A model generated the notes under the pieces. That model saw only the letters and a list, made by a program, of their open reading frames with translations, had not been told where the DNA came from and did not search any database. From Microbotryomycetes sp. JL201 (lineage: Eukaryota; Basidiomycota; Microbotryomycetes), in NCBI GenBank assembly GCA_033819885.1, contig JAQYUZ010000032.1, positions 124,001-188,000 of the forward strand: DNA of 64,000 nucleotides. The letters run 5' to 3'. Positions 17,926 through 61,882 of the stretch are shown piece by piece. The position numbers were made by a program, and so were the translations under genes. Position 1 is the stretch's first letter. The number at the start of each line of letters is the position of its first letter.

Positions 17926-17991
17926 AAGTGCTGTATTGGGCAAGCTTGTTGCAACGTACTCGAAATTTTCGTTGAGATCGACTAAACAAAC

Positions 17992-18170
17992 GGCACCGAG
18001 CGGCGAGCCTTGTGGCTTTCGCTCCTCCGACCAGCCAGTGGAATGCTTCGCCTTCGTCCGTCCAGAAAGTCAGCAAGTTGACGATGGAGGGCTAGAGAGA
18101 TGCCTTTAACTTTCCGCTCATTGGTTTTCGCCCAAGTGCAACCGCAATCATTAACGTCACAAGTGCATAC
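17992..18170 (+). repeat. left terminal direct repeat
   Basis: Shares an extended match with 21577-21750 in the same orientation, starting ACGGCACCGAG and continuing through GGCTTTCGCTC, CCGACCAGCCAG and GTCAGCAAGTTGA. Small gaps and substitutions are scattered through it. It could be an LTR remnant or a terminal repeat of a non-autonomous derivative. Outer ends are approximate. Confidence 0.65.
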
Positions 18171-18349
18171 GCAATCGAGTGTGTCAAAAAGTCCGCGGCA
18201 ATATTCACTGAAATGGCCGATTGCGAAGCTCTCTCGGCACACAAGCGAAAAGCTCCTGAGGATTTATATTACAAAGTGCTTCGAAGTGACCAGTTTGCTG
18301 CTGTCGACGGTTGGTGCTGCGCGCGCTTCTCGGATTGTGAATGGGCAGG

Positions 18350-19425
18350 GCTAGCCGTGGTCGACGCCCTCGTTGCAGGTGACGTTTACGCTGCTGTCCG
18401 AATTTTCGACGACTTGAAAGACGTAGACATGCGACGCTGCCATCGGCTCGACGATCGCGCATCATAAATCAAAGCTCGCGAAGCCGTACTCGCCTTTCAG
18501 GCTACCATGCAAGTCGTCACCGGCGCACATCAAGGAGCAGTCGTCGTCCAACGAGGCGAGCTTGTGCTCCGCGACGTAAGGCTTGCCTCAGACGAAATTA
18601 TTCTCGGACACCCTGTCGTCCCAGGCTTGCAGCCAATCGTCCGTGGACAAGTCTCCGAGGAAGCGCAACGCTTCACCTTTAATGGCCCAGCGGCAACAGT
18701 CAACACGTTCCGCCACGCGCGCTCAAAGATCCAGGAAGACCTCGTCGAAGGTGGTATCGTCGCGCGCACGTTCCGCCGTCGACCGCCGGCGCCTCCAAAT
18801 GACGAGGAAGCTATAGCCCGTCGCAGGGCGGCCCAACCTCCTCGAGCCGCTCGTCTAGCCGGCGTCTGTGGACGACTTCAAGACGTCTCCGAGTCCGAAA
18901 GCGATGAAGACCTTCCGCAGAGCGTCAACAGGCTCGCACGAGCAAAGCTCACGAAAACGGTGCTTCTCGTCGGACACAATGCGCTTGCAAACGGCGCTCT
19001 GCACACACTGTGCGAGGAAGAAGGTGAGTGGCATTAACCGCACATGACAGCTCTCGTGGACTGACTGTACTCCTACGTAATCAGTAAATCAGCCAGCAGG
19101 TCGTCGCTCGGCATTAGAGGCCGTATTTGAGTTCCTGTGGGAAACATTTTCTTTTGCTCTAGGTCAAGCTTTGACCGCAGTCCTCGTTAAGATCCGACGG
19201 ATCCTTGCCACGCAAGAGTACAATCTCACACTGTACCATCATCGATGGACCAGCCCTGCTCGTCTGAAACCACTTATCAGTGCTGTACTCTGGCTACTGG
19301 GGACTGTAGAGGATTTACAGAAGCTGGACGCCACCGAGCAGCGCATGCCTCGACAGCGGTCAATATGGCACTGGTCTTTAGGTCGAGCCAAAAACTTTGA
19401 ACCGCGCGAGACAGGCCTACCCATC
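18350..19425 (+). repeat. left arm of the long imperfect inverted repeat
   Basis: This arm matches the reverse complement of roughly 19440-20500. It includes a still-open frame of 176 codons at 18507-19037 containing VSESESDEDLPQSVNRLA, mirrored on the opposite strand of the right arm. The inner ends of the two arms are separated by only a few tens of bases near 19430. Confidence 0.7.
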
Positions 19426-19439
19426 CCGGCGCGCTCAAG

Positions 19440-20500
19440 GATGCGACCTGGTTCTAAAGACCAGTACCATGTTGACCACTGTCGAGGCATGCGATGCTCG
19501 ACGACGCTCAGCTTTTGCAAGTCGTCTACTGTGGCCAGTAGCCAGAGTGCGCCACTAATCAATTGTTTAAGACGAGCAGGGCTGGTCCATCGATGCTGGT
19601 ACAGTGCGAGCCGGTAATCTTGCGTGGCGAGGATTCGTCGGATTTCGACCAGGACTGCCGTCAAAGTTTGGCCGAGAGCAAAAGAAAGGTTTCCCTCAAG
19701 AATTTCAATAAGGCCTTCAGTGCTGGGCGACAACCTGCCGGCTTTTCAAACGATTACGTTGGAGAACACTCAGTCCACAGTAGCTGTCATGTGCGGTCAA
19801 AGTTATTGTCCTTCTTCCTCGCACAGAGTGTGCAGAGGGCCGTTTGAAAGCGCCTTGTTTCCGACGAGGAGCACCGTTTTTATGAGCTTGGCTCGTGCGA
19901 AGCGAGTCTGTTGATGTTGTTCGAAATGTGTCCATCGCTGTCGGATTCGGAGACGTGCTCAAGTCGACCACGAACGCCTGCCAGATGAGCGGCTCGAGGA
20001 AGTCGGTCGGCGATGTGACTGGCTATAGCTGCCTCGTCATTTGGAAGCGCCGGTGGTCGAGGGCGGAACGTGCGCGCGACCATTACACCTTCCACGATGT
20101 CTGCCTGGACATCCGGGCGCGCGTGCTGGAAGTGTCGAGTCTTGTCGCTGGGCCGTGAAAAGGAAAGCGTTGCGCGTCCTGGGCGACTTGTCGATGAACG
20201 ATTGCCTGCAAGCCTGCGACGAGAGGGTGTCCGAGAATGATCTCGTCTGAGCCAAGCCTTAAGTCTCCGAACACAAGCTTGCCTCGTTGGACCTTGACTG
20301 CTTTTGGATGGGCGCCGATGGCGGGGTGACGAGTTGCATGGTAGCCTGAAAGGCGCGCATGGCGTCGCGGGCCTTGATTCCTGATGGGCGGCCGTCGAGC
20401 CGATGGCAACGTCGCATGTCTATGTCGCTCAAATCGTTGAAAACTCCTACAGGAGCGTCAACGTCTCCTGCATCGAGGGCGTCGACTGCTTACAGTCCTA
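19440..20500 (-). repeat. right arm of the long imperfect inverted repeat
   Basis: Inverted counterpart of the left arm. Landmarks on the minus strand include DIDMRRCHRLDGRPSG and AFQATMQLVT, matching DVDMRRCHRLDDR and AFQATMQVVT of the left arm. Beyond about 20500 the right side continues with minus-strand coding-like sequence (to about 21400) that has no partner on the left. Confidence 0.7.
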
Positions 20501-21576: not shown

Positions 21577-21750
21577 TACGGCACCGAGCTGCAAGCCTTT
21601 TGGCTTTCGCTCTTCCGACCAGCCAGCGGAATGTATCCTTCGTCCGAAACGTCAGCAAGTTGAACGATGAAGGGCTCGAGAAATGCCCTCAATTTTCCGG
21701 TCATCGGCTTCAGCGTCCAAGTGCCACTGCCAAGTGACAAAAATTGTCAT
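21577..21750 (+). repeat. right terminal direct repeat
   Basis: Direct-orientation copy of the left terminal repeat. Together they bound the element at both ends, the basis for calling it LTR-like. No clear target-site duplication could be picked by eye. Confidence 0.6.
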
Positions 21751-38131: not shown

Positions 38132-39637
38132 ATGAGCACAACCGAGCCGATCACCGTCCTCGACGACAGCTCGCCAGGCCCATTCGAGGGCCCAGAGAAG
38201 CTGCTCGAGCTCTGGTTTGCACCCTCCGAGCACGATGTCCAGCCAACGTCCAATGGCAGCGCTTCACGCAAGGGCAAGCAAAAGATGACGGGCCTGCGCA
38301 GCGTAGACAAGACCGTATGGGACAGCATGCTCGACGAAGTCCAGTGCAAAGTCTTGAGCATCATCGAGGGCGACGACGTTGATGCATACTTGCTCAGGTT
38401 AGCTCGACGCTTGTTTCCTGCCTGAGGTAGGCTCGAGCTCACAACGTCTCGGTTGTGCTCTCAGCGAATCGTCCATGTTCGTATGGCCGCACAAGCTCAT
38501 TCTCAAAACATGTGGAACCACTACGCTGCTGCTCGGCATTCCCACCTTGCTCCGTATTGCATCGGAAATGTGCGGGTTCAGGGGCGTGTGGAGGTGTTTC
38601 TACTCGCGCAAGACGTTCATGTTTCCTGAGCGCCAGCGGGGGCCGCACAAGGACTGGACGCAAGAAGTCGAGTTCCTGGACCAGCTCTTCCGTAAGCGTG
38701 TAGCTTTTTGGACGTTTGATTCGCGCTCACAGCAATACCCGGCTTGCTAGAAAACTCGTCGGCCTACACTGTCGGCCGCATGAACGGCGATCACTGGCTG
38801 TTGTACTTGACGCCACCCCAAGATGACGTGCTCAACCCGAACGCACTCGCTTCATCGAAAGCCCTTCCGCCATCGAGCCCGTCTGTACCGCTCGCTAGCC
38901 TGTCTACGTCTTTGTCAAAAGAGCTCAGCATTCCTCATCCAAACCACATGGGTTCTCCTCAACACTTTGCTCCCCGCCTGCCATCTCGACCTGATCAGAC
39001 GCTCGAGATTCTCATGACTCAGCTTCATCCTTCTGCATGTGCGTCTTTCTACCACCCGAGCGCAACGACCACGACGCCATACAAGTCGCCTTTGCTCGCC
39101 ACCGACCCTTCAGACGCTGATGCACATGCTCTCGGAGCCAAATTGTCTGACGAGCTCGGCATCACTGCGCTCATGCCCGAGGCAACGATCGACTCTTTCC
39201 TGTTCACGCCATGCGGGTACAGTGCCAACGCCGTTCAAGGGGACCGCTATGCCACTATTCATGTCACTCCAGAGCCCGAATACTCTTACGCCTCGTTTGA
39301 GACGAATCTCGACTTTGCTGAAGACGACAATGGCGTGTCGAGATCGAGGTCCGGTGACGTCCTCGGCCCTCAGAGCTTGCAAGAACTCGTCAGCAAGGTC
39401 CTGGGCATCTTCAAGCCTGCAAAAATGAGCATCACGCTGTTCGTATCTGATGACGAAGCGGCAGAGTCTGATGACTTGGACGAGTTCAGTCAACTCGGTC
39501 AATCGAAGCGCCACGATGACCTCAAGATGATCCTCAAGCCAGACTTGTTGACGGACTACAAGAGGACTGACAGGATCATTTACTCGTACGATGGATATTC
39601 GTTAGCATACCTCTGCTTCGAAGCCAAGCATGCGTAG
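38132..39637 (+). CDS. SPE2: S-adenosylmethionine decarboxylase proenzyme
   Basis: Exons 38132-38397, 38465-38691 and 38733-39637 total 1398 nt, 465 residues. Conserved parts are FEGPEKLLELWFAPSEHD with the catalytic and putrescine-site glutamates, and the self-cleavage site LLSESSMFVWPHKLILKTCG. There the chain is cut before Ser to make the pyruvoyl group, and the Cys of KTCGTTTLL is the proton donor. GRMNGDHWLLYLTPP and the processing histidine/serine region PEYSYASFETNLDF follow. The enzyme supplies decarboxylated SAM for spermidine synthesis. Intron 1 splits the codon for the Ser just before the cleavage-site Glu. The protein is longer than the yeast enzyme because of Ser/Pro-rich inserts near residues 195-235 and 330-390. 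Confidence 0.95.
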
Positions 39638-39764
39638 ATGACGGTCTTTTTCTGCGACTATGGTTCTTTTCTTGGTTGTAGACATTATTAGAATATGTGA
39701 TAATACCCAGAACTCTCTCCGGCCCATGTCTTGTATGCTACAGCGAGATGATCCAGTATTTCGG

Positions 39765-40471
39765 TCAACGCTTTCGTGGCGACGTCGAGCTGCCTCCCCC
39801 AGATGATGCGTTGCCTCCCCCAAACCCGAGCATCTCGACTCCACTTGACATTCGTTTCATGAAACTAGGTCTCTTTGTCGAACCTTCACCCGATTTGAGT
39901 CTATCGATCCGAGCTCGTTCCTTTGCTTCTCGCTCTTCGCGACTCAAGACGGGTTCAGGTGGCACGACGGGTGAGAACCAACCCGTGCCTGGTTGCATCA
40001 TTACCGTGAGCAAAAAGGCGCTGCGGTCCGACATTGATAACCCTCACCCGTTCTTAATTGGTGCCACAGACCATCTTTCGAGTCGCTCGTTCTCCTTCTC
40101 GATGACGACGACGAAGTTGTTGTCGATACAGCCTTGTCACGCATCCTCTCTGCCTTGAGCATTTCTCTATCACTCGGATTGTGATCCAACTCTTGACTTA
40201 ATGCGTCACTAATGTCGTTTGAGACTTGTAAAGTGTTGCCTCGAGGTCTCGTCGGAGTGTTCGAGCTGATGATAGGTGTCTGTTGGTTCGTCGTGTCGGT
40301 TGAAGGTCTCGAAATGAAAGATGACGATGCCGTCGTCGTTGTCGTTCGTGTAGTGTGTGCAGGGTTGGAAGACCAAGTCGAATCGAGTGACACGCGAGGA
40401 TCGACGAACGGGTCTTTGGCCCATGCAGCTTCTCCTGGATTCGTTGGATGTGTGTACGTTGTTGATGACAT
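39765..40471 (-). CDS. small uncharacterised protein, 215 residues
   Basis: Exons 40471-40048 and 39988-39765 (59-nt intron) sum to 648 nt. It starts MSSTTYTHPTNPGEAAWAKD and has a Ser/Thr-rich middle. The best-conserved-looking block is LWHQLRTGTGWFSPVVPPEP, then VLSREEREAKERARIDRLKS, a basic-acidic helix. It ends in a Gly/Ser-rich tail, SSTSPRKR. I recall no named family. The block after the intron has the style of short fungal proteins annotated only as hypothetical. No signal peptide or membrane segment. It converges on SPE2 with 127 nt between stops. Confidence 0.6.
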
Positions 40472-40808
40472 GGTGATTGTACGGGTCTGCGTGCTTGAGC
40501 GCGTTCGAGTCGCCGAGCAATTAAACGCCGAGCGAGCAAACTAGCGCGCAGAGGCAATGTGCTATAATGGCAGGCAAGCTTGCCTGATGATTGGATCGTA
40601 GGAAGGCACTGCCCTTTGCAGGCAGTAATGGCGTTGTGCTGGCAGGTTGGTGATCGATGACGTCCTTTCACCTGTCGGGTTTTCCGGAAAGTCCTACATG
40701 AGACGTAATTACTCGACTTGATCAAGAGCAGTCAAGAGCTGTTGCAGTCATCTTTTTACACAGTCTCTGGCCCAATTGTTTTTTTGTTTTTTTTTTTACA
40801 TCTACGGT
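40472..40808. other. intergenic, with a T-rich run
   Basis: 337 nt between the hypothetical gene and the tandem family. A T-rich run (T7-G-T11) at about 40780-40798 lies just beyond the stop of gene D. Nothing else seen. Confidence 0.4.
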
Positions 40809-42069
40809 TCAAGTGTAGCGCTCACGCTGCCGACGAGTCCACAATCCGCCGCGCCTGTCCTTATCGAGAATGTAAGGATCATGGCCAAAGGCGCGTTCAA
40901 CGGGCTCGTCTTGCCACCCCGGTCCTGGTGCTTCCAGGTTTCGATTGAAGTAATGCTCGACGCCATTCAGAGAATTAAGAACTTGCAGCAATTGGCCTTT
41001 CGCAAAGTGGCTGTCGGTGTGCAGGTGAGCATACCAGAAAGGCTCGCCCGAGTTGTCTCGTTCAAACTTCTTCAAGATCTGATAAAGTGTCCATCCAGGG
41101 CCGGCTTGAGGACCTCCTTTGGCGTCATTCATGACGTGGCCAAACCTGGAATCACGCTCGCCGGACGACGGAGGCAAGTGATCAGGCGTGATGGTCCAGC
41201 GCTGCGAAAGTATACGATATAGTCATTCCTGAATGTTGTCTTTGCAGCTATCGCAAAACTCACTGTCATGTACTCAAGTCTGATGGGACTATTCAGAGCC
41301 AAGTCCAATGTGACAAACCACTGTTGAAAGCTACTGTAAACCCCTCATTTGTCTTGAACCCTGCCAAACTCACGTCTAGAACAAGCATAACTGCATACTG
41401 CAGTACCAATATGGTTTTATTGAGATATTGTGCCGCATATGAACCGTGTTGGCATTGAGAATCGAAATTTGTCCGAATATTCGCGAGCACAATGCTCAAC
41501 TCCCGCTTGACAGACAGTCGCATGAGCTCAACAGCAGATCCAAATTTGACCCCAGGTTCAGAGATGCGGAAAGAGGTTACGCATCCCTCCATAAAGGCTA
41601 CGATTTCCGCTTTCACGGTCACGAGCTAAACCGCATCAGGTCCAAGAAGTGAATGATCAATTAGCCAAGGGACGGCTCACCAGATGTTCGAAGATTGTCG
41701 CTCTTCGCACCGCATTCACATTCTCACAGTGAGAAAACCCTACCTGGACGAACCGGCAAAGCAAGTTCTGTTCGATTCGGAATGGACGTAGCAAGCGCAC
41801 ATTGCCCGGGTGAGCGCCAAATTTAGACGCTGACTGCAGGCACGACTCACTGCCGCAGATGTCCTAGCACAATCTTGTAATCGCTTGTGGGACAAACCAA
41901 TCACAGTCCTAGAATGTGTCGCCCTCCCAAAAACGTCGCACGTGGTATGAAAACTAGTCTGCAGCTCGTCAACGTCATCGTCGCGAAGCAAGCCCAATTT
42001 TAAAAGCTCCTCATAACGAGGCCCTAGCCGGTTCCATTCTTGAGCGATGATAGACACCGGCGCCGTCAT
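40809..42069 (-). CDS. tandem family gene D, unknown function (TRRQ-tail family)
   Basis: Fourth and most downstream member of the array. Exon 1 is 42069-41851: MTAPVSIIAQEWNRLGPRYE to GLSHKRLQDCARTSAA. Later exons hold LMRLSVKRELSIVLANIRTN, the short exon WFVTLDLALNSPIRLEYMT, and a last exon beginning RWTITPDHLPPSSGERDS. The end is GGLWTRRQRERYT with TGA at 40811-40809. D is closest to gene C: both have the W-x-x-TLD exon, a PGxxxYQI block (WTLYQILKKFERDNSG) and the tail WTRRQ. The exon between 41851 and about 41630 was not fixed. No signal peptide, membrane segment or known domain is seen; it looks mainly helical. Confidence 0.65.
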
Positions 42070-42354
42070 CAACTTCAAGAAAATTGAGAAGGCTAGCAAC
42101 GCCCGACTCGATCTACTCCTTGGATTTAGACCCGGGAAGCTCCTGTTGTCGAGTGCCGAATGGCACAGGCAAGAGTCGCCATCTTTTGCACTAAGCTTGT
42201 AAAGCGCTTCTCTGGAACAGATTGCTTGTTTTGAAGAGGCTGCGGTTTCAAATTAATATATTGGCCGCAATGTTCTTGGGAAAAGTCGAGTTGACTAAGA
42301 GTGTAGATACATTGTTCCTACCCATAAGGTCCCGAAATACCAGAAGCTGTCAAG

Positions 42355-43688
42355 TTAACGCAGGACTGGCCCATAACGTTTGCATTGGCGACGTGTCCAA
42401 ATTCCATCTCTTCCTTCCATTTGAACAATATTCGCATCATGCGTGTGACCAAGTGAGCCTTGGTAAAGCCCATCTTGCCAGCCTGCACGCGGCACCGTGG
42501 TCCATCTAGCTGGGTAGTAATGGTGCAGAACGCCATTCATGGTGTTCTGAACTCGAGACAGCTCGCCTTTTTCGAAACCCATTCGTTCGCTCGCGATTGT
42601 GCTCTGGTGCGAGATCCAGAGATGAGGCTTGGGCTGCTCACGAGAATGAGTAATTGCTTGAATGATCTGGTAGATACCAAAACCAGGTCCCGGTTTGCCA
42701 TTCCCAGTGGTGGATGTGGAATCTGCTTGAATACGCGAACGGCGCTCTTGTTCGGCCTTGGCTTTGAGATCGACCGTCGGTATCGTGTCTGCGACCCAGC
42801 GCTATACAGCCGGCCCGCGATCAGTTCCAGTGACTCTTCGTTCTTTTTTTTGAGCCTGAAACTAACGACCATGTACTCGCACCTAAGAGGACTCTGCTCG
42901 GCTTTGTCCAGCGTCAAAGCCCACTAGGCAAGTTTGACAGACTGTCAGTAAAGAGTCTATTCACTGCTTGTGCTCAATGACTGACATCCGTTATTAACCA
43001 GACAAGAGACGTGAGACTTTGTTTGACCAAGACGACATGCTCGGCGTGACGACGACTCTCCCGCGCATTCACTCCAAGCTGTGCATGCTGGACCAAATAC
43101 GTTTTGGAACAGCTAATGACAGTCAGCGTCTCGCGATCAAGAGTCAGATCCATATACTGCATTATTATTCGGGCCAAACCTCGCGCAGAAGCATCGGGCG
43201 ATTGTCGGATTGCATTTCTCAGCACTCCGAAAACCTTCTCGTACGTGGTGAGCTATGCAGCAGGTCCACCAAACGTGTCAGCACGTCCACGAAGAAATTC
43301 ACAATTAAACATACGAGATGTGATATAGCGTTGAGGCGCTGTGAAGGTTCCAGCTGATCGTATGCAACAAGGCTGTCCTCGACGAGCTGACAAACCAAAG
43401 TCTGATGATTCCAGGTCAGAAATAGGTAACGAGTTCATTTACACAGCAATTGAAGTGACGAACCGCTTCAAAACATTTCATGGAGTCCTGCAAACGGCGT
43501 TGGGATATTCCCAGTGACGCGTCGTTGCCAGCTCGCGTGAACAGCTCGTGACCGGCGGCGAATGCTTCAGTGAGAGCAGTGTACTGAGCGTTGGTGAGAA
43601 GGCCTGTACCCCAGAGATACGTGACTCTAGGATGGACAGTCATCCAGAAAGGGGCCAATACATCTCCTGGTGTTGCGAACGAACTCAT
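42355..43688 (-). CDS. tandem family gene C, unknown function (TRRQ-tail family)
   Basis: Starts MSSFATPGDVLAPFWMTVHP at 43688. The first exon ends at GISQRRLQDSMKCFEA, matching D's GLSHKRLQDCART. Internal exons read TLVCQLVEDSLVAYDQLEPS, LTTYEKVFGVLRNAIRQSPD, MDLTLDRETLTVISCSKTYL, and WALTLDKAEQSPLRCEYM. The last exon begins RWVADTIPTVDLKAKAEQ, continues PGPGFGIYQIIQAITHSRE, and ends GRDGIWTRRQCKRYGPVLR with TAA at 42357-42355. Exon order and the phase-0 junctions follow the other three genes. Sequence identity to A and B is low, so the duplication is old or the genes evolve fast. No known domain recognised. Confidence 0.65.
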
Positions 43689-43910
43689 TTGTTGAGTGGT
43701 GACTCGGCAACGAGAGCGCCGAGGAAAAAGTTGTTTGGAGGCAAGCGGGAGGAGCGGTCTGGTTCTACCAGAGCTCCTGATCGTGCAATGCTGTGCAAAG
43801 CTTGTATTCATTGTCACAGACTTGTAAAGCACACTCAGTCATTTCTACGTGTCAAGAAGCAAGGCTATCCAGACCATCTTGATGGGTCTAATCTCTCGTT
43901 CACAAACTTG

Positions 43911-45099
43911 TCAAAAGCTGTATCTCGCATGCTGCCTGCGCGTGACGATGCCCCCATTTTCCATCCGCACCAAGTGATGGTCCATACTCAACGTATGAAT
44001 CACATGCTCCTTCTTCCAAAGCTCCGGATCCTTTTCGTCGAGCATTCGTATTAATTGCTCACACAGTGCATTGATTTGACCAAGAACCGAGTGAGATGTC
44101 CATTGCTCTCCTGACTTCCATCCGGCGCGTATATTGCTGGCGATACTTTGATCCTCTGGAGAGAGTCTGAGCTGATCCTGGGCTAGGGTCCAACGCTGTC
44201 AAAGCTGGCACAGTCAGCATGCATCCATGTAATAGGCTAAGTGCACTTGCACCAATTTGTTCAGGGCTAGCACGATGCCCTTCAGAGCAGATCGAGACCT
44301 GCAGCAGCGAGGAAAGTTAACGGATTCAAAAAAGATCAACAAGAGATCGTACAGCGCGTTCGACGGCTCACATCGGCTATCAGAAATGCCAAAGCACATA
44401 TTATAGAAGAGATGCTGATATCAGTGGTGCGACCAGTCTTGCTTGCCTCGTGCTTTGCCAATTGATGAGCAACTGCAATTTCTCTGTCTATCGTAGTGTT
44501 GGCATGGATGGAGTGCTCAAGGCCGAAGAAGCTGCGAAAGTTGGGCATCACTTTGTCGAACATGAAATTGTTCTTTCACGTAAAGTCGTCAGCAGTCGCC
44601 TGAAGCTCGCTACAGGCGTGATTTTCACTGACGAGATTGTCTAGCTCGTTCTTTTTCTGCGTCAGGTTTGCATGGTCAGCCACATTTTAACATCAGCCGA
44701 CGAAGCTGACTCACGGCGGTCGGGGAAGAGTTTGCGTAGTGTTGCGCGAAGTTTGCGTACAGACTGCGTGCTTTTTCTGTGAAGAGCACCTTTGAGATGA
44801 CGAAAAAGGTCAGAAGTGCAGATCAGTAGCCCGTGGAAAGCTGTTGGACGCACGACGCAAAAAGCAAGAGCTCGCAAATGGAGAATGCTGTCGTCCGCCA
44901 CTCTCCGAACACCGGCGGGGGCGTGGACGTGCAAATGTCTGACCTCGTTAAAGATCTTCATGCCGGAGTGGTACTTCGACAGAAGCTCCTGCCGACTTTC
45001 TTGCGAAGTGAAGAAGAAGCGATGAGGATCATCCAATGCGAACAAGACCGAATTCCAGAACCTCTCGATGGTTTGATGCGCTTCCGAATTGTTTGGCAT
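43911..45099 (-). CDS. tandem family gene B, unknown function (TRRQ-tail family)
   Basis: Exon 1 is 45099-44857 (81 residues): MPNNSEAHQTIERFWNSVLF to SILHLRALAFC. Exon 2 is 44789-44715 (VLFTEKARSLYANFAQHYAN). Then come a short exon KKNELDNL, an exon FMFDKVMPNFRSFFGLEHSI followed by TIDREIAVAHQLAKHEASK and CALAFLIAD, and a very short exon GIVLALNKL. The last exon opens RWTLAQDQLRLSPEDQSIAS and ends VRMENGGIVTRRQHARYSF (TGA 43913-43911). All introns fit phase 0. B pairs with gene A in length, in the FW..V opening and the LRA.AFC end of exon 1. No domain, signal peptide or membrane span is recognised. An upstream in-frame extension to 45327 exists but has no counterpart in A. Confidence 0.65.
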
Positions 45100-45418
45100 G
45101 TCGAGGTTGGAAAAATGATTGGATGGATCAGAGTTTGGGCGTTCCTCTATTGCCGCGGCTTTGTCCGATTTAACCTCCTGAGCGTGCCTCCGTGCGGTGC
45201 AAGATGCCGCCTCGGGGAACGACCGAGCATAAATTTGCTTCGTTGGTTCGCGCAAGCCGCTGTGTAGTCTCATGTTACCAGAAAAAAGACAAATTTTTTG
45301 CTTGTAATGATCTGCATCCGCGGGCAATCAAGCGCAGAGCTTGGCCAAAACGAGTTCCATCACATGAGGCCTCAGACCGTCACGAGACTTGAGGAGATCT
45401 CTCAATACACAAGCTACT
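45100..45418. other. spacer between tandem family genes A and B
   Basis: 319 nt, the presumed promoter of gene B and terminator of gene A. No motif stands out. Confidence 0.3.
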
Positions 45419-46677
45419 TTATTCCAAGCGATATCTTTCAAGCTGCCTTCTCGTCATTATGGCGCCGTTTTCAAGTCGCAGAACATGCCGACTCTCGTGG
45501 GCCGCTGATTCTGCGCTAGCCCTGTCAGCGGGTTCGATCGGTAGCGATGGACGATTGCCTGGCTCATGCGTGAATCGATTGTTGATAATCTGTCGTCTAC
45601 GATTGGCTGATTGCAGCGGAGCCTGGGTGGCAGAGGGAGGCTGAAAGCTTCGAAGCATGGCAGATGTCTCCACAAGGACTCTACAAATCTGGCCCACATG
45701 CTCATGTGAGATCCACGACGACGTGAAACTTGGCCCTTGAGCTCGTCGCTGCTTGCCGCTTTCGATATCGTCAGAATTTGGGAGTGCCATGATCCACAGC
45801 TGCTTGGGAAGGTGTATCAGCGCCAGCCTCAAAGCTCAGTCCGTTGGTCTTACCCTCATCTGGGCGGGATCAGCCGCATTTCGTTGTCGGCAAAGCACGA
45901 TCTGTTGAGAGCGTCTGTCAGAATGCTCTATCCAATATGCTGAAACAGCGGGTAATCAATGTCGGATGAGAATGAGGACAAAGAAATCGCACAACAATGA
46001 TGAAATAGCCGAGGGCCGCACATATGCCGCTTAACCGCGAGGCCGTTACTCCTCGGGCTTCCGAGCCCGATTTCTCAAGGTGATCGCGCACTAGTGAACT
46101 CGCAATCGACATTTCTCGATCAATCACACGCTCAAACTCGGGATCGGTGCGGAAATGTTGACGAAAAAGTGGCAAAAAGCGATTAAAAATGTGATTGAAC
46201 TGTATTGATGGCGAACCTGTCAGTGCGGATGTTACTGTCTCAATTTGCGTCACACACCACGTTGTCCGCAGTCAGCTTGGTCTGGAAATGCACGGATCAG
46301 TCGGGCTTGAGCATGCCGTGAGCTGACGGAATCCCACCTTGATGATATCTGGGTAACACTCATATATGTATCTGAAATGGCAGAGTACTTTGCTGGCGAA
46401 AAGCATCTGCAAGTTGACGTTGAGCGTCCGGGGACGAAAAGTTTTCGAGAGCCAGACTGACACCACAGAATGCAACAGCACGCAAACGCAAGACTGCTTC
46501 AACAGTTTGGCCCCGATTTTGGCCAGCAAAAGCAGCTAGTCCCTTGGAAAGCACGGCTTGCAAGTACCGCCCGTCCTGGACAGTCAAGTAGTCGAGCTGT
46601 CCACGACCTGCAGCCGGGAACATGACAGAGTCCCAGAAGCTCTGAATTATGGTGCGATAGGTACTCGGACTGGACAT
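45419..46677 (-). CDS. tandem family gene A, unknown function (TRRQ-tail family)
   Basis: First gene of the minus-strand array. Exons: 46677-46462 (MSSPSTYRTIIQSFWDSVMF to LRLRAVAFCG), 46406-46338 (MLFASKVLCHFRYIYECYPD), 46281-46258 (TKLTADNV) and 46199-45996 (FNHIFNRFLPLFRQHFRTDP, VIDREMSIASSLVRDHLEK). A short exon IVLCRQRNAADPAQMR follows. The last exon begins LWIMALPNSDDIESGKQ, contains FTSSWISHEHVGQICRVL and ends RLENGAIMTRRQLERYRLE (TAA 45421-45419). The coding exons are multiples of three, so every intron is phase 0, at the same places as in gene B. Function unknown; likely intracellular because no secretion signal is present. The start is 183 nt downstream of the YTH gene stop. Confidence 0.65.
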
Positions 46678-46860
46678 TGTGAAAGCTCGAGATTCTCGGC
46701 CTTGGCTTCTCGGCGTCTCGAGTCCCCACGCCACGGACTTGCGCCTCCGGCTCACTTGCGGTGCCGGCGAGTCATAGAGACAAGCTGCATCAGATTTACA
46801 ATAGCTACAATATGTCTTCTGCAAAGGCTACATGCAGGTATCGACAAAGTGTCCTTGGTA

Positions 46861-49800
46861 TCAAACGTCATGCGTGGTCTGTTCTGATTCGAAGAAGGCA
46901 TTAAACAGCGCTTCGCCCGCCGAAGGTTCAAGCTCGGTACCTGCAAGGTGGTCTCAGCATCAACATTATAGATACCGCACACAAGACTTGCCGTCACGAC
47001 TGATCTTGACCTCCCGGCCCGCGTTGAAATGATTTCGTATGTGCCGAGTTTGAGAGAACGGCAGAGGGGCACTGCTTGCAATCGACGTTAGCTCTATTAC
47101 ATCGACCATATACGTACGACTCACACTTTGATCCACTCTACCTTGAACGGCTTGCCCCATCCGGCCGACAAGCTGCGCGACCCTGGCTCGGCAGTCCTGC
47201 ACATGGCTGTCAATATCGAGTCGCTACAGAGAGAAGAAAGACCTCCTCACTTGTCTTCGATGTTCTCAAGTCTGGCGTTCCTCTCTGCTGGCGTTGGCAA
47301 CGTATCTTTTCGCCACACGCCGTCATCGTCAACTTTGCCGTCGTGTCCACTCGATCCGGCGATGCGCTGCAAGTCGACAGCGTTTGCTCCCACCGGCCCA
47401 TCGGACGCAGACTTTGGATCTTGCTTGAGCAGTGCAGGGTCCAGAGTCTGTCTGCGAACAACAGGCTCCGACTTGGACACATTGGCGGGTAACTTGAGAC
47501 TGGAGGCGACCGCTACGGCCGCAGGCAAAGTTTCCGCTCTCGAGGCTTGGGCAAATTCAAGCGTTGCATCGTCGAGCGCAGGCGGCGGAGCCGACACCAT
47601 GCCATTTGGTCGAGCTTCAGGTGCATCATCATCGGGCACAGGTAGAGGCGACATGTCGGTGAAACGGTCCTCTGCTTCGGGAAACAACAAAGTCGACTCT
47701 TGAGAAGATGCCGAGCCAGCGAGCTCTTCCTTGATCGTCGCCGGTCTCACAAGCGAATTGGAGTGGGTAGGCGGAAACGATTCGTCAGAACGCGACGAGT
47801 TTGTGGCTTTGGAACCGCATGATGAGCTAGTGTTGTCAGCGTGAATAGACGAAGCCATGCGAGCAACACCAAAGAAGCAGCCCGTCCTGTTCGCGCTGAA
47901 GATCAAATACACGTCTTTGGCCGTGCGGAATGCTTGATCAAGAATAGGCTGAGCAAAAAAAAAGAGGAATCAGTCTAGTATCTTGATGACGAAGAAAAGT
48001 TAATCACCTCGTTGTGAGCCTGAGTCGCCCAAATTCCTCGCTCAACAGACAGCTGTAGGTCACTCTCGTCATGAGACTTGAGCACGAAGAAGCGTTTGGC
48101 AAAGTTTTGCCTGAGGAACGAGCTTGACGTGCTCGCAGTGGACACTGATCTCAGTGTCTCGGACGTCGAGTGTCGCAAAGCATGCAACTTGTTCATCTGT
48201 TCAACGTTTGGCGAATCATCAGAATCGTCCATCATGCTTGTAGTCGTTGCTTGTGCTTGAGCGTCCCGCCTTCGTTTCTCACGAACAAACTCTTTGTGCA
48301 TGCCTCCAATCCGTTGAGCTCCGACACCAGATTTTGTGTCTTCGTCCTTCTTCCGTTCTCGGCAGACGAGGTCTTTGCAGCGAGGATCAAAGCCGCGCAG
48401 AGGAATCCCGTTGGACACCTCAATGGCATGCTGCAAGTGGATCGCTGACGCATAGTTGACAAACGCGCAGTTCGAGCGATTGATCAAATGAATCGAGTCG
48501 ATGCCAACCGAGTTGAGATCGACTGACGGATCGAGATCAACCGGTCGGTGAGCATACTTTGGGTTGGCAGAGGGCGGTGGCCGAGTGTTGAAGAATGCCC
48601 ACAACTCGGCATGGGTCGCATCGGAAGGCACATTGCCGACCCTGAGCACGACAGCGTCAGCGTCCAGCGCCTTTCAAATCGGAAGAAACAAAGTCGTCTT
48701 ACCAGAGCGCGTACGGAGAATGCGCTGGGGGTTTCGGCAAAGCAGAACCTCTGTTGACACTGGGAACGCCCCGTTTGTGCTCTCCATAAACGGCATCGTG
48801 AAAGCGAGCTTGCGCAAGGTGGCCTCGAGCCAGCTCTGGAGGAGGCGCATACACTTGTGGCGGCGGAATTGATGAGGGAGAGGCCGGATTATGCATGCCC
48901 ATCGCCATCGGAGGCACAACATATCCCGGGACGGCGACAGGTGGCAATCCAAGAGCATGGTAAGCTTGTGGCAGTGGCATGCCCGGTCTGTACGCCATCG
49001 CCGCAAACTGATTCGAAGGACCAGGCGGGTGCGAGGACACCTGATAGTGTCTGGCATCTGGCGCCTGAAACGCTGTAGCGAACTGTACGTACTGTTGACC
49101 GTACTGAGTCGACATTGGGTCGAGTGCACTGAAATGCGTGTATGTCATATACGGAGCCGTCATTGCTTGTGCGACATACGGCGGGCTCTGTCGTTGTGCG
49201 AGTCCGTCTGCAAAATGCTCCGCCGGCGAATCATGAGCGTAGGAGCTCGCAGCAAAGTCGGGAGACGTAGCTGTAGACGGTGAATGATAAGTTGAAGATG
49301 AAGTCGGAGAAAAGAAGGTGTGGGACGACATGGGACTGGTTGGCGCGGAAAACTGCTGAGACGGGTCGACAAACGGAATTTGGCCGTGAGGGGTATTGGA
49401 CAGCGCCAGGTGGCTCGGTGAGGCGGCGAATTGATATGAAGATGGTGCGACTTCCGGAGACATGCCTCGCATGTGACCCACATTGGAGATGCCGAGCGCC
49501 GATTGTCCGCCAGACCAATTCGGAAATTCGGCATTGCCAGTCCGCGGGCTGTGCGCTCCGTACGCAGGTGCACTCGAATTATATGAAGATTGACGCTGGC
49601 GCGTCGACCGAGGCAGTGGTCTTTTCTGGTTGGCGTCTGGGGACCTTTGCGCTGCTGCCGCTCGAGTCTGGGACAGAATCTTTGTTGGCTGAGTACAAAC
49701 GAAGATATTTCATTGAGTGTCGCTAGTAAGTCACACAGGAATTTGCTAGAGATGGCTCACCGAATGCATGCTTGGCGAGGATGGAGGTCGCAGAGCAGCC

Positions 49801-55225: not shown

Positions 55226-56359
55226 ATGACCGAAGAATATACCGCCCCGAAGAACGCCGACTTCAGGCTCGTTGCAAGCGAGTACGTTCATTTTCCACGT
55301 GCTCTGAGACTGATATGTGTACAAATGACTCAAAAGCTCATCATTTGAATCGCCAGTGGCGTGGGTTTCTGGGTGCGCAAGCAGGCCTTGCAAGCGGTCT
55401 CGACTGTATTTGCAGACATGTTCGAGATGCCTGGGCAATCGAGCATCGCAATTCCAGGCGAGATGTCGAAGCGGTTGATACAAGTCAACCCAGACAATTC
55501 TGTCGACCTGACAGAGTCCTCCGACGTGCTCAGCATCTCGCTTGCCGTGATAGATCCAGCTCAACCGTTGAAGTCGCGAGCATTGGAGTGGCTCAAAAAT
55601 CTGCATTTATTCTGGCAGGTTGTCTTGTTTGCGGAAAAGTATCAAGCAAGTCGCAATGGGTGATTCTCGGAAACAAGGAGCTGTACTGGTTTCAGAATAT
55701 ACACAGATGCCAATCCTGACCGGTCGAATTATGATGGAGGCTGCGTGAGCACAGCAAAATCTTACCTGCGCGATGTGACTTGCTCACTTGGCTCGCCACA
55801 GGCTCTTACTTTGCCGATCATTGCCAGAAGGTTCACAGTCGACCGAGATATACTTCAACTTTGCCGCATTTGCTGCACACTGCAAGTTCCCGGATCTAGC
55901 AAATCAAGCGATTGCTCGGACTCTGGACAATGGACCCACTGTGAAACAGCTCGATCGGTGGGCCGCCGAGATTGCGGCAAACTCCAAGGACATGATCGAT
56001 GCAACGCCTCTTGTCCGGCAGATTTCTCAATATCGGGCTGGTTTACGCTCCGCTGAAACTGAATTTGACTGCATCAGGTTCTTGCATGTCTAAAACATTG
56101 GCGGAAAGTCCAGGAAGGACGCTTTGAGATTTTGCAAGATTATGTGGGCGAGGGAGGTCTCGAGAAGACGATCGAGAGAAATTCCAAGGTGTTTGCTTCT
56201 TGGGCGCTACTCGAGTGCAGTTCGACACCCGCTCCTGTGGATAGAACCAGGTTGTCGACTCGTCTTACGCTCCAAGAGGCGACTGCCAAGAACGGGGCGA
56301 GGCGGGACTTGTACACTCCATTGCGCGCTCTCTTGGAGGTGGAGAAGACTTTCAAATAG
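55226..56359 (+). CDS. BTB/POZ domain protein, tandem copy 1
   Basis: Exons 55226-55281, 55357-55645, 55707-55744, 55802-56012 and 56078-56359 sum to 876 nt, 291 residues. The BTB fold is at the N-terminus: MTEEYTAPKNADFRLVASDG, VGFWVRKQALQAVSTVFADM, then LSISLAVIDPAQPLKSRALE and FWQVVLFAEKYQ. A helical C-terminal half (IYFNFAAFAAHCKFPDLANQ; VLACLKHWRKVQEGRFEIL) has no recognised domain. BTB proteins act in dimerisation or as Cul3 adaptors; no partner domain is visible. The second intron (55646-55706) begins GCAAGT; the paralogue at 56793 has a GT intron at the same codon. Exon 3 is 38 nt in both genes. Confidence 0.8.
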
Positions 56360-56792: not shown

Positions 56793-57882
56793 ATGTCAAT
56801 CGAAAAGCTCTATCCGTACCAGGCGCCCAAAGATGCCGATTTCAAGATCATCTCGAGCGAGTGAGTACGCGACCTTTTCGCAATATGATGCTACTGAAAC
56901 GCTTTGAAATGAAGCGGCGTCGAGTTTCCCGTGTGCAAGCTCGCCTTGCAAGCTGTCTCAAGCGTGTTTGCCGACATGTTTGCGGTCGTTGGCGCTTGTG
57001 AAACAGATGCAAAAACAGATGCGCAAGCACAAAGTGACTCTCAAGTAACGTTGACAGAGAATGCAGACACGCTGCGGATTGTTCTCGGTGTACTAGACCC
57101 AAGTCAACTTTTTAGCCAACGCCCACTGGACTGGATTGCCCAAAAAGAGCTATTTTGGTCGGTAGTTGTGCTCGTGCACAAGTACGAGGTGAGAAAGTCA
57201 CGAAAAAGTACTGCTGCCCACGAAGGTTGACTTGAGCGGGTGGCGTTCGTTCCAGCTTCCGGTGGTGACGGTCCGCATCCTTGTCGAGGCCAAGTGAGCG
57301 CGCTGAGGTTTCTGAGGAGGAGTGGACGCTCACGATTTGATAGCCTCGCGCTCTTTGCACCTCTGGGCTCGGGCTGGAACAAACCCGAATTGCGTTTCCG
57401 AATCGCAGTATATGGTGCGCATCACGGTCCCAGCCTTCTCTTCAACCAAGCGGTATATCAGATAGTAGACGGAACCTCTGTCAACCAGTTCGAAGCCTGG
57501 AGTAGTGAGATTGCTCAGCTAACAAGCCATTTAATTGACGCCGAACCGACTGTGAGCGACTTCTCTGCCGGTCAGTTTTTGATGGCTGAACGCGGTGTAT
57601 CCTCAGGTGTTGGCATGCCTCAAACTCAAAGCTAGAGCGCAGGAGGCGCGCCGGGTGATATTTGAAAAATACATTCGACCCATCGCCATGACAGCAGAGA
57701 ACGCCGCTATCCTTTTGGCTTGGAGCAAAACGGAGAACCTCTGCACAGTGAGAGGTCTGGATCGGCTACTTCGGTCCGATGGGAGTGCGTACAAAGCGCT
57801 TCAGAAAGTGCCGGATATGAACAATCGGAAGAACAACATTATCCACCTTTTGCGCGAAGCGTTCGAGTCGATCAAAACTTGA
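56793..57882 (+). CDS. BTB/POZ domain protein, tandem copy 2
   Basis: Exons 56793-56860, 56915-57188, 57256-57293, 57344-57551 and 57607-57882 sum to 864 nt, 287 residues. It starts MSIEKLYPYQAPKDADFKII and continues SSDGVEFPVCKLALQAVSSV FADMF, matching copy 1. LRIVLGVLDPSQLFSQRPLD and FWSVVVLVHKYE complete the BTB part. LRFRIAVYGAHHGPSLLFNQ and VLACLKLKARAQEARRVIFE form the C-terminal half. Intron positions are shared with copy 1, so the two arose by tandem duplication and then diverged strongly. A short Asp/Gln/Thr-rich insert in the BTB domain (TDAKTDAQAQSDSQ) is specific to this copy. Confidence 0.8.
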
Positions 57883-59662: not shown

Positions 59663-61882
59663 ATGGCATTCATGCCACGTGCGATTGCACGCAAGAACAA
59701 GCCGCCTGCTTCGACCACAGCTGGAGCGTCTGGCGCAAAGTCCGGAGGAACGTCTGTTGCTCGAGTCACGGAGGCGGCGGACTCGTCAATCGCCCCTAGC
59801 ATGGCACAAGTCAACACTCAGGCATCGACTGAAGCTTCCACGAGTCGCGGCGCGACGCAAGACGCTGTGTCGGACGCGACCAGGCAGTTGTCGAAAGTCA
59901 AGCTTGATCCTCACCAGGAACAACTACGGGAACAGCTCTTGTCGACAATCGAAAGCTCATTTTCAGACTGGGGGCTGTCTACGTACAAGTCTTCGGGCTT
60001 GTTGGACAGAATCAGAAGTAGCGCGGACGGATGTCCGTCCTATGATGAGAGTGTCATCGAATACGATATGGCTGACTCGGGTCCACATCCTGCAGTCGTC
60101 CACATTCAGCACGTCTTGCAGCTGGCACCAGTGCGAGCACTAACATCGACGCAAGCTGACGTGCAGAAGGCTCTGGCACATCGACCTTCTTTGATCGTCA
60201 AGGCAAGTCCGGGTATATCCAAAGTCATGCTTTGCTGACATTCAAAGCATTTTGTAGCTGTCTCCAACCGGGTTTGGTATCGGGCGAATCGACAACATCA
60301 ACATTGACCGCTTGATCAGCCTCGAACCAGCCGACTGGGACGACATGACGCTGTATCTGGTCAGTCGGCTTGCATTCGAATTCGGTCCGAATCTTTCTGA
60401 TCAATCCGTAATGTTGTTACATTACAGGATAATATTCCTTCAATTCCAGCCTCCTTTGGATCATCTCTCGCTTCGTTTATTTCTGCCATGTTGTCTACGG
60501 TTGTTCAACGCATTATAATCCCCCCGCTCTATGACCCGCAACGCAAGGACAAGGATTCCGAGACTTATGACGATGGTAGTCAAAGCGAGGCCTTTGCAAG
60601 GGCCCAGGCTGCCAAGACGGCCAAACCGCTTCGCACCGCCGCACTGAAACTCCCGGCCGGCGGGGGACCATTCAGAGGTTATGCATTTGTTGTCGTTCAG
60701 AGTCAAGAGGACGCGAACCGGATACTGAATACATGGAAGTGGGAGCGTGCGCCTGTCGAGTCCAGTGGCGACGCCAGGACCGCTGAGGATGGTAATGACG
60801 AAGACGTGAGTATGATGGAGGAGGGGCCTGTCAAGCTGGAGAGTCTAGCGAGGATGTATGGTCTCAGAGCGCTCTCTTAGTAAGTCAGTGTGCTGCTGCG
60901 CAGCCCAATCAGCGCTGACGGGGTTGTTCGCAGTAAACGATGGCTCGAGCTCAAGGCGGAATACTTGCGGTACCGGAAAAGCTTGTATGTTCTTGCTGAA
61001 GCTTACGCCGAGAAGAATCAACTGCAACGACGACAACGTATGCGAGGCAGTCCGTCGCCGCCTCCCGCACTCGAACGAGAGCCATTGCCCTCGGCGCCTG
61101 TGACCAACAAGACTCCGAAGCGACCTGCCGACTCTGGCCCCGAAAACAGTACAAAGCGATCGTCCAAGAAAGCGAAGCGAGCATCGAGCCCGAGCGACTG
61201 GAGCAAACATGTTCGACCGCCGTCGCCCGAGATTCCCCTCGACAGCGAACAAGCTCTCGAGGCCAAGGGAGCATTCCCAAAAGGATGCATCGTATGGTTG
61301 CGCAACATTCATGAAAAGAGCACGAAGAATTCGCTCAAGACTGTGCTCAGCAAGCTGTTGGAAGAGCTCGAGGAGGGAAGTGGCACTGGCGTCGAATTTA
61401 TCGATTACGAGAAAGGGCTCGACAATGTAAGTGGACAATTGCCGATGATCGGTCAGCGATTCACCATGTGTGCGACACAGTGCCATGTCCGTTTCGCGTC
61501 AGCGCATTTGGCGACGCTTATGCACGAACACTTGACGTCCAATCAATGCGTTCAACTGGCTTCAAATTATATCTCGTCTCCCGCACTCAGCTCGACACCA
61601 CCCGAAGGTGTTATATCGGACCCTGGTCGTCGGCCCCTCATTTCTCAAACACTCGAAGGCGAACGGGAACGAATTTACTGGCAACAATTGCCCGAATCGA
61701 CTCGGCGTGGAGCACGCAAGAGTGCCGGCGGGCCTGTGGCCCTTGTGTCAAAGGGCAAGAAGGAGATTGCTCGCGACTTGATCGAGGCGAGGTTGAGCGA
61801 GATGAACGGTTCGACTGAGGGTGCAGAGCAAGAGCAAACCGAGGTCAGAGCAAAGCGGACAAAAAAGCCATCACGAGCTTGA
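59663..61882 (+). CDS. La-related protein, LARP7/Pof8-like (La motif, RRM, C-terminal xRRM)
   Basis: Exons 59663-60202, 60258-60359, 60428-60879, 60934-61426 and 61481-61882 sum to 1989 nt, 662 residues. The La-motif-like part is HQEQLREQLLSTIESSFSDW to ALAHRPSLIVKLSPTGFGIG; it is degenerate. RRM1 has RNP2 TLYLDNIPSIP and RNP1 FRGYAFVVVQSQEDANRI, closing with LSYKRWLELKAEYLRY, a typical La-protein ending of RRM1. A basic linker (NSTKRSSKKAKRASSPS) leads to a C-terminal xRRM: KGCIVWLRNIHEKSTKNSLK and CHVRFASAHLATLMHEHL. LARP7 proteins bind U-tailed Pol III RNAs; fission yeast Pof8 assembles telomerase RNA and also aids U6 methylation. Which RNA is bound here is open. Intron 1 (60203-60257) starts GCAAGT. 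Confidence 0.72.

What the first reader, a model, noticed from the sequence alone, without database searches (positions are those of the whole stretch)
40809..46677. Four-gene tandem array of an unrecognised protein family
Genes A-D lie head to tail on the minus strand within 5.9 kb. They share exon order, a FW-type or equivalent opening exon, a central (L/I)DRE block (VIDREMSIAS, TIDREIAVAH, TLDRETLTVI), a very short penultimate exon and a last exon beginning (R/L)W. All end in one C-terminal signature. Overall identity is low, suggesting old duplication with fast divergence. A pairs with B, and C with D. I recognise no domain. A clustered, rapidly diverging family in a fungus is often lineage-specific and may concern self/non-self recognition, host interaction or mating; none of these is shown here.
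Basis: partly seen in the sequence, partly recalled or inferred. Interest (0 to 1): 0.75.

Follow-up and report, generated by a model that had tools for sequence, protein, structure and literature searches.

The report
Four ancient tandem fungal paralogue genes
Four neighbouring genes in what looks like a fungal genome are old copies of one gene, share intron positions and an identical motif at the protein end, and match no protein family we could search; what they do is not known.

Summary
Four head-to-tail minus-strand genes (46677-40809) are paralogues. A-B match at blastp E 1e-19 and C-D at 3e-41. The AB and CD profiles match at hhalign score 47.2, E 6e-6, against a maximum of 21.3 in 50 column shuffles. 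All 18 modelled introns are phase 0; four positions are shared by exon order. A and B have six exons, C and D five.

The strongest family-wide signature is the C-terminal tail TRRQ-x-x-R-Y. All 16 invariant residues that can be spelled by more than one codon are so spelled. Fourfold sites are at random identity. The copies are therefore old and were held by purifying selection. 'Fast divergence' is not shown.

No significant hit came from Pfam, NCBIfam, PADLOC, PHROGs or PDB. No fungal collection was available, so 'lineage-specific' is untested and the organism was not identified. AlphaFold on single exons gave a helical middle exon (pLDDT 74) and an unusable last exon (49). Most likely: intracellular, mainly helical proteins whose conserved tail docks to a common partner. 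That function is weakly supported.

The parts
45419..46677 (-). gene A, 6 exons: 46677-46462, 46406-46338, 46281-46258, 46199-45993, 45901-45854, 45799-45419; 314 aa
   Evidence: splice model with GT-AG phase-0 introns; blastp to B 1.1e-19
43911..45099 (-). gene B, 6 exons: 45099-44857, 44789-44715, 44656-44633, 44572-44372, 44279-44253 (uncertain), 44195-43911; 284 aa
   Evidence: an upstream in-frame ATG at 45273 is also open
42355..43688 (-). gene C, 5 exons: 43688-43464, 43401-43315, 43252-42986, 42923-42870, 42801-42355; 359 aa
   Evidence: blastp to D 2.6e-41; an upstream in-frame ATG at 43811 is also open
40809..42069 (-). gene D, 5 exons: 42069-41851, 41767-41681, 41625-41374, 41320-41264, 41201-40809; 335 aa
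45431..45454 (-). C-terminal tail motif TRRQ-x-x-R-Y of A
   Evidence: coordinates counted back from the stop codon by hand
43920..43943 (-). C-terminal tail motif TRRQ-x-x-R-Y of B
   Evidence: coordinates counted by hand
42373..42396 (-). C-terminal tail motif TRRQ-x-x-R-Y of C
   Evidence: coordinates counted by hand
40815..40838 (-). C-terminal tail motif TRRQ-x-x-R-Y of D
   Evidence: coordinates counted by hand

Best explanation
An old array of four paralogous, intron-bearing protein genes made by successive tandem DNA duplications: one ancestor gave the AB and CD ancestors, then each duplicated again. Each copy has been kept by purifying selection on its protein. The products look like intracellular proteins of 32.6-40.5 kDa with a mainly helical first two thirds and a C-terminal region ending in an invariant tail, TRRQ-x-x-R-Y. 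Most likely mechanism (inferred): the helical body binds copy-specific partners and the common tail docks onto one shared partner or packs as a fixed part of a common fold, so that the four act as variants of one adaptor. Shown: homology, old age, conservation at protein level, and a splice model for each gene. Inferred: that transcripts follow these models, cell location, helical nature beyond the one exon modelled, the adaptor role.
For: Homology and controls. Intron positions: 18 of 18 modelled introns phase 0; three of the positions lie within 6 alignment columns in all four genes, and 0 of 20000 random placements gave three. Invariant residues: 16 of 16 that can vary in codon do vary. Saturated fourfold sites with retained amino-acid identity. 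In-frame codon score is the best of six frames for B, C and D, though not for A. Middle exon of C modelled as three helices, mean pLDDT 74.3, pTM 0.48. No signal-peptide-like start by hydropathy. The tail block is the best conserved part between the pairs: 7-8 of 14-16 columns identical, against 45-58 of 260-278 over the whole length, in the four cross-pair comparisons.
Against: The adaptor role rests on conservation pattern alone; no structure, partner or expression was tested. The last exon did not fold with confidence (pLDDT 49), so whether the tail is exposed is unknown. A hydrophobic stretch in the middle (Kyte-Doolittle mean over 19 residues: 2.20 in A, 2.37 in B, 1.19 in C, 1.91 in D) could be a membrane segment instead of a buried helix. 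Codon score is negative in all six frames of all four genes, and for A an antisense frame scores higher than the coding frame (-0.072 against -0.131). Between the pairs, A-C and B-C do not clear all of their shuffles (5 and 1 of 60). The splice sites of A and the fifth exon of B were chosen with the other copies in view, so their phase agreement is in part built in.
Confidence: 0.35

Rival explanations
1. A diverged branch of a known helical protein family that single-sequence and HMMER searches no longer recognise.
For: Only HMMER-type searches of the libraries were possible; the four are barely linked to each other by blastp across pairs, so an outside relative at similar distance would be missed.
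Against: 0 Pfam families at E up to 10 for each of the four; best PDB profile match E 1.3; best Foldseek match of the middle exon E 1.6, on a partial model.
Confidence: 0.35
2. A rapidly diversifying self/non-self, mating or host-interaction family.
For: Tandem clustering, low identity between copies, no known domain.
Against: Divergence can be explained by age: fourfold sites are saturated. No signal-peptide-like start by hydropathy. No mating-type, NLR-like or HET-like domain among the 28 ORF stretches of the window given to Pfam; the other ORFs were not scanned.
Confidence: 0.15
3. Membrane-associated proteins anchored by the hydrophobic segment that spans the intron after the (D)RE exon.
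For: Segments such as LSGICAALGYFIIVIVLCR in A and ISSIICALAFLIADGIVLA in B.
Against: Weak in C (mean 1.19); an acidic residue lies inside the segment in B, C and D.
Confidence: 0.12
4. Decaying gene copies or chance open frames.
For: Weak codon preference; B may have lost an original donor site at its fifth exon.
Against: All four have complete splice models without an internal stop; 16 of 16 degenerate invariant residues vary only in codon; C-D E 2.6e-41.
Confidence: 0.03

Closest known systems
Tandem arrays of lineage-specific (orphan) paralogues in fungal genomes, as a general kind
   Same: Head-to-tail copies, shared introns, no recognised domain
   Different: Here the copies are very old (saturated fourfold sites) and share one tail motif; clade restriction could not be tested. 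The comparison is from general knowledge, not from a call
No named protein family
   Same: No match with E below 0.02 in Pfam, NCBIfam, PADLOC, PHROGs or PDB
   Different: Best non-significant matches: EfeO models in NCBIfam (E 0.025, one of four members), a PHROG of unknown function (E 0.051 for one exon), a bacterial cadmium regulator in PDB (E 1.3)

Membership tests
one paralogous family (the four genes themselves) | sequence homology of all four | tested here: met
   A-B 1.1e-19, C-D 2.6e-41, AB-CD profiles 5.9e-6; profile score above 50 of 50 shuffles; A-C and B-C alone do not clear all shuffles
one paralogous family (the four genes themselves) | shared intron positions and phase | tested here: met
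   18 of 18 modelled introns phase 0; four positions shared by exon order, three of them within 6 columns of one alignment in all four genes, the fourth not
one paralogous family (the four genes themselves) | common fold | tested here: inconclusive
   only one single-exon model each of D's last exon and C's middle exon: pLDDT 49 and 74
secreted effectors | N-terminal signal peptide | tested here: not met
   best 10-residue hydropathy near the N-terminus 0.85-1.23; hydropathy only, no signal-peptide predictor
lineage-specific fungal family | absence outside a narrow clade | not testable with these tools
   no fungal proteomes or genomes held; no whole genome held for the window
known domain family | match above curated cut-off | tested here: not met
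   0 of 4 in Pfam at E up to 10

The most novel reading that the evidence does not exclude
A hitherto undescribed fungal protein family in which four anciently duplicated helical proteins, barely alike elsewhere, share an invariant TRRQ-x-x-R-Y C-terminus that acts as a docking peptide for one common partner, giving a set of interchangeable adaptors encoded side by side.
Probability: 0.12. Interest if true: 0.55.

Novelty: new member of a known kind. Interest (0 to 1): 0.3.

Why it matters
If the family proves absent from named families in fungal databases, it adds an uncharacterised, long-conserved gene set with a testable motif. The codon evidence shows that these are real, selected proteins and not annotation noise. 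Otherwise it is an ordinary old tandem array.

Tried and rejected
Whole-genome search: no genome is held for the window. Relatives in viral contigs: 7 pattern matches, none confirmed. Relatives in bacterial and archaeal genome contigs: the first call returned an error because the alignment had no conserved stretch; repeated with D's last exon alone, 25 pattern matches, none confirmed. Plasmids: no match for D. DNA repeats of 16 nt or more across 39600-48800: one 17-nt direct and one 17-nt inverted pair, taken as chance. tRNA and Rfam (gathering score): none in the window. Foldseek of the middle exon: 98 matches with E up to 10, none with E up to 0.001; 50 rows were shown, of varied proteins. 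The last-exon model was not searched because of low confidence. Paper searches: I saw the listings and the starts of abstracts only and opened no paper; one search followed a guess at the organism (Mixia osmundae) that I could neither support nor exclude, so I name none. Considered and dropped: positive selection as the cause of low identity.

Full report
What was checked. I rebuilt the four genes from the sequence with GT-AG introns. Moving the first donor to 46461 and the acceptor to 46407, and shifting the next sites, gives a 6-exon gene whose introns are all phase 0 and whose second exon (MLFASKVLCHFRYIYECYPDIIK) parallels that of B (VLFTEKARSLYANFAQHYANSSPTA). The A-B blastp score is 73.9 bits with the refined models and was 63.9 with the first ones; B's start had also been moved. 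The choice used similarity to B, so the gain is in part built in.

Homology. E-values by blastp, one pair each: A-B 1.1e-19, C-D 2.6e-41, B-D 5.4e-5, A-D 7.9e-4, B-C 0.006, A-C 0.09. In 60 shuffles per pair, none reached the observed score for A-B, A-D, B-D and C-D; 1 of 60 did for B-C and 5 of 60 for A-C. An earlier run with the first models gave 0 of 60 for five pairs and 3 of 60 for A-C. A+B against C+D as profiles: hhalign E 5.9e-6, score 47.2; 50 column shuffles, all parsed, reach 21.3 at most. The four-gene profile finds no further copy in the window.

Gene structure. 18 introns, median 61 nt, range 53-92, all modelled in phase 0. By exon order, intron 1, the intron before the (D)RE exon, the one after it and the one before the last exon are common to all four; A and B have one more, which sets off a micro-exon of 8 residues that is fused to the preceding exon in C and D. 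In a sequence-only alignment three of the common positions fall within 6 columns in all four genes (0 of 20000 random placements gave three); the fourth does not, because the short penultimate exon of A and B aligns poorly. B's penultimate exon is the least certain part: with the donor I used it has 9 residues, while reading on would give a stretch ending in YYM, like EYM in C and D, with no GT donor behind it. This reading of B is from the sequence by eye.

Selection. Nineteen columns are invariant in the alignment of the four. Three are M or W. The other 16 are each encoded by more than one codon among the four genes, including all six fixed residues of TRRQ-x-x-R-Y. Fourfold third positions with the same first two bases agree in 6 of 33 (A-B) and 16 of 53 (C-D), close to the 8.4 and 13.6 expected from base composition. 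dS could not be computed (NG86 returned no value, YN00 failed); dN by NG86 is 0.75 and 0.77. The copies are old and were conserved as proteins. A claim of fast divergence needs orthologues, which were not available. Codon preference trained on 5104 codons of the window outside the array is negative in all six frames for all four genes; the coding frame is the best of six in B, C and D but not in A.

What the proteins look like. Sizes 314, 284, 359 and 335 residues, pI 7.2-9.7, no strongly hydrophobic N-terminus. Upstream in-frame ATGs exist in B and C; I prefer the ATG that lines up with A. The middle exon of C, aligned with its three counterparts, is modelled as three helices with mean pLDDT 74.3 and pTM 0.48. 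The last exon of D, likewise aligned, gave pLDDT 49.4 and is not used. Foldseek against PDB with the middle exon gave nothing at E up to 0.001.

Known families. Pfam at E up to 10: none for any of the four, with the first models and the refined ones. NCBIfam: best E 0.025 in one of four members. PADLOC: none at E up to 1. PHROGs with 7 single exons: best E 0.051. PDB by sequence: none for C, E 1.3 for the profile. No fungal collection could be searched. So 'unrecognised' means unrecognised by these libraries only.

Surroundings. Upstream of A on the same strand are stretches with RRM and YTH domains; a reading frame that I take for the end of that gene stops 183 nt before A's start. Beyond D lies a short same-strand stretch with no Pfam match above cut-off, and then S-adenosylmethionine decarboxylase on the other strand. 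That the host is a fungus, probably a basidiomycete, is my inference from short dense introns and gene content; it was not tested.

Mechanism. I commit to a set of helical adaptors with a common docking tail at about one in three. The helical body is supported for one exon only. The tail is the best conserved block between the pairs, which fits either a docking peptide or a structural end piece.

Changes on checking. Shuffle controls were rerun with the refined models: B-C now has 1 of 60 shuffles at or above the observed score and A-C 5 of 60. The profile result stands.

Noticed in passing
18096-20489: Open frames on + (18096-19614) and - (19242-20489) match each other as proteins over stretches of 25-167 aa (56-79% identity): an inverted repeat, perhaps two opposed gene copies or a palindromic element. 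No Pfam match at E up to 1 in the five stretches of it scanned.
   Followed up: partly
17990-18145 and 21578-21730: A direct DNA repeat of 159 alignment columns, 80.5% identical, on either side of that inverted repeat.
   Followed up: no
55349-56090 and 56913-57632: A second tandem pair on the + strand (44% and 36% protein identity in two stretches), with a BTB/POZ match below the cut-off in one copy, E 0.013.
   Followed up: partly
60884-61879: Protein with an xRRM domain (Pfam E 1.1e-22), a domain known from La-related telomerase proteins (recalled).
   Followed up: no
47250-48673: RRM and YTH domain stretches upstream of the array on the same strand, taken as one gene.
   Followed up: no
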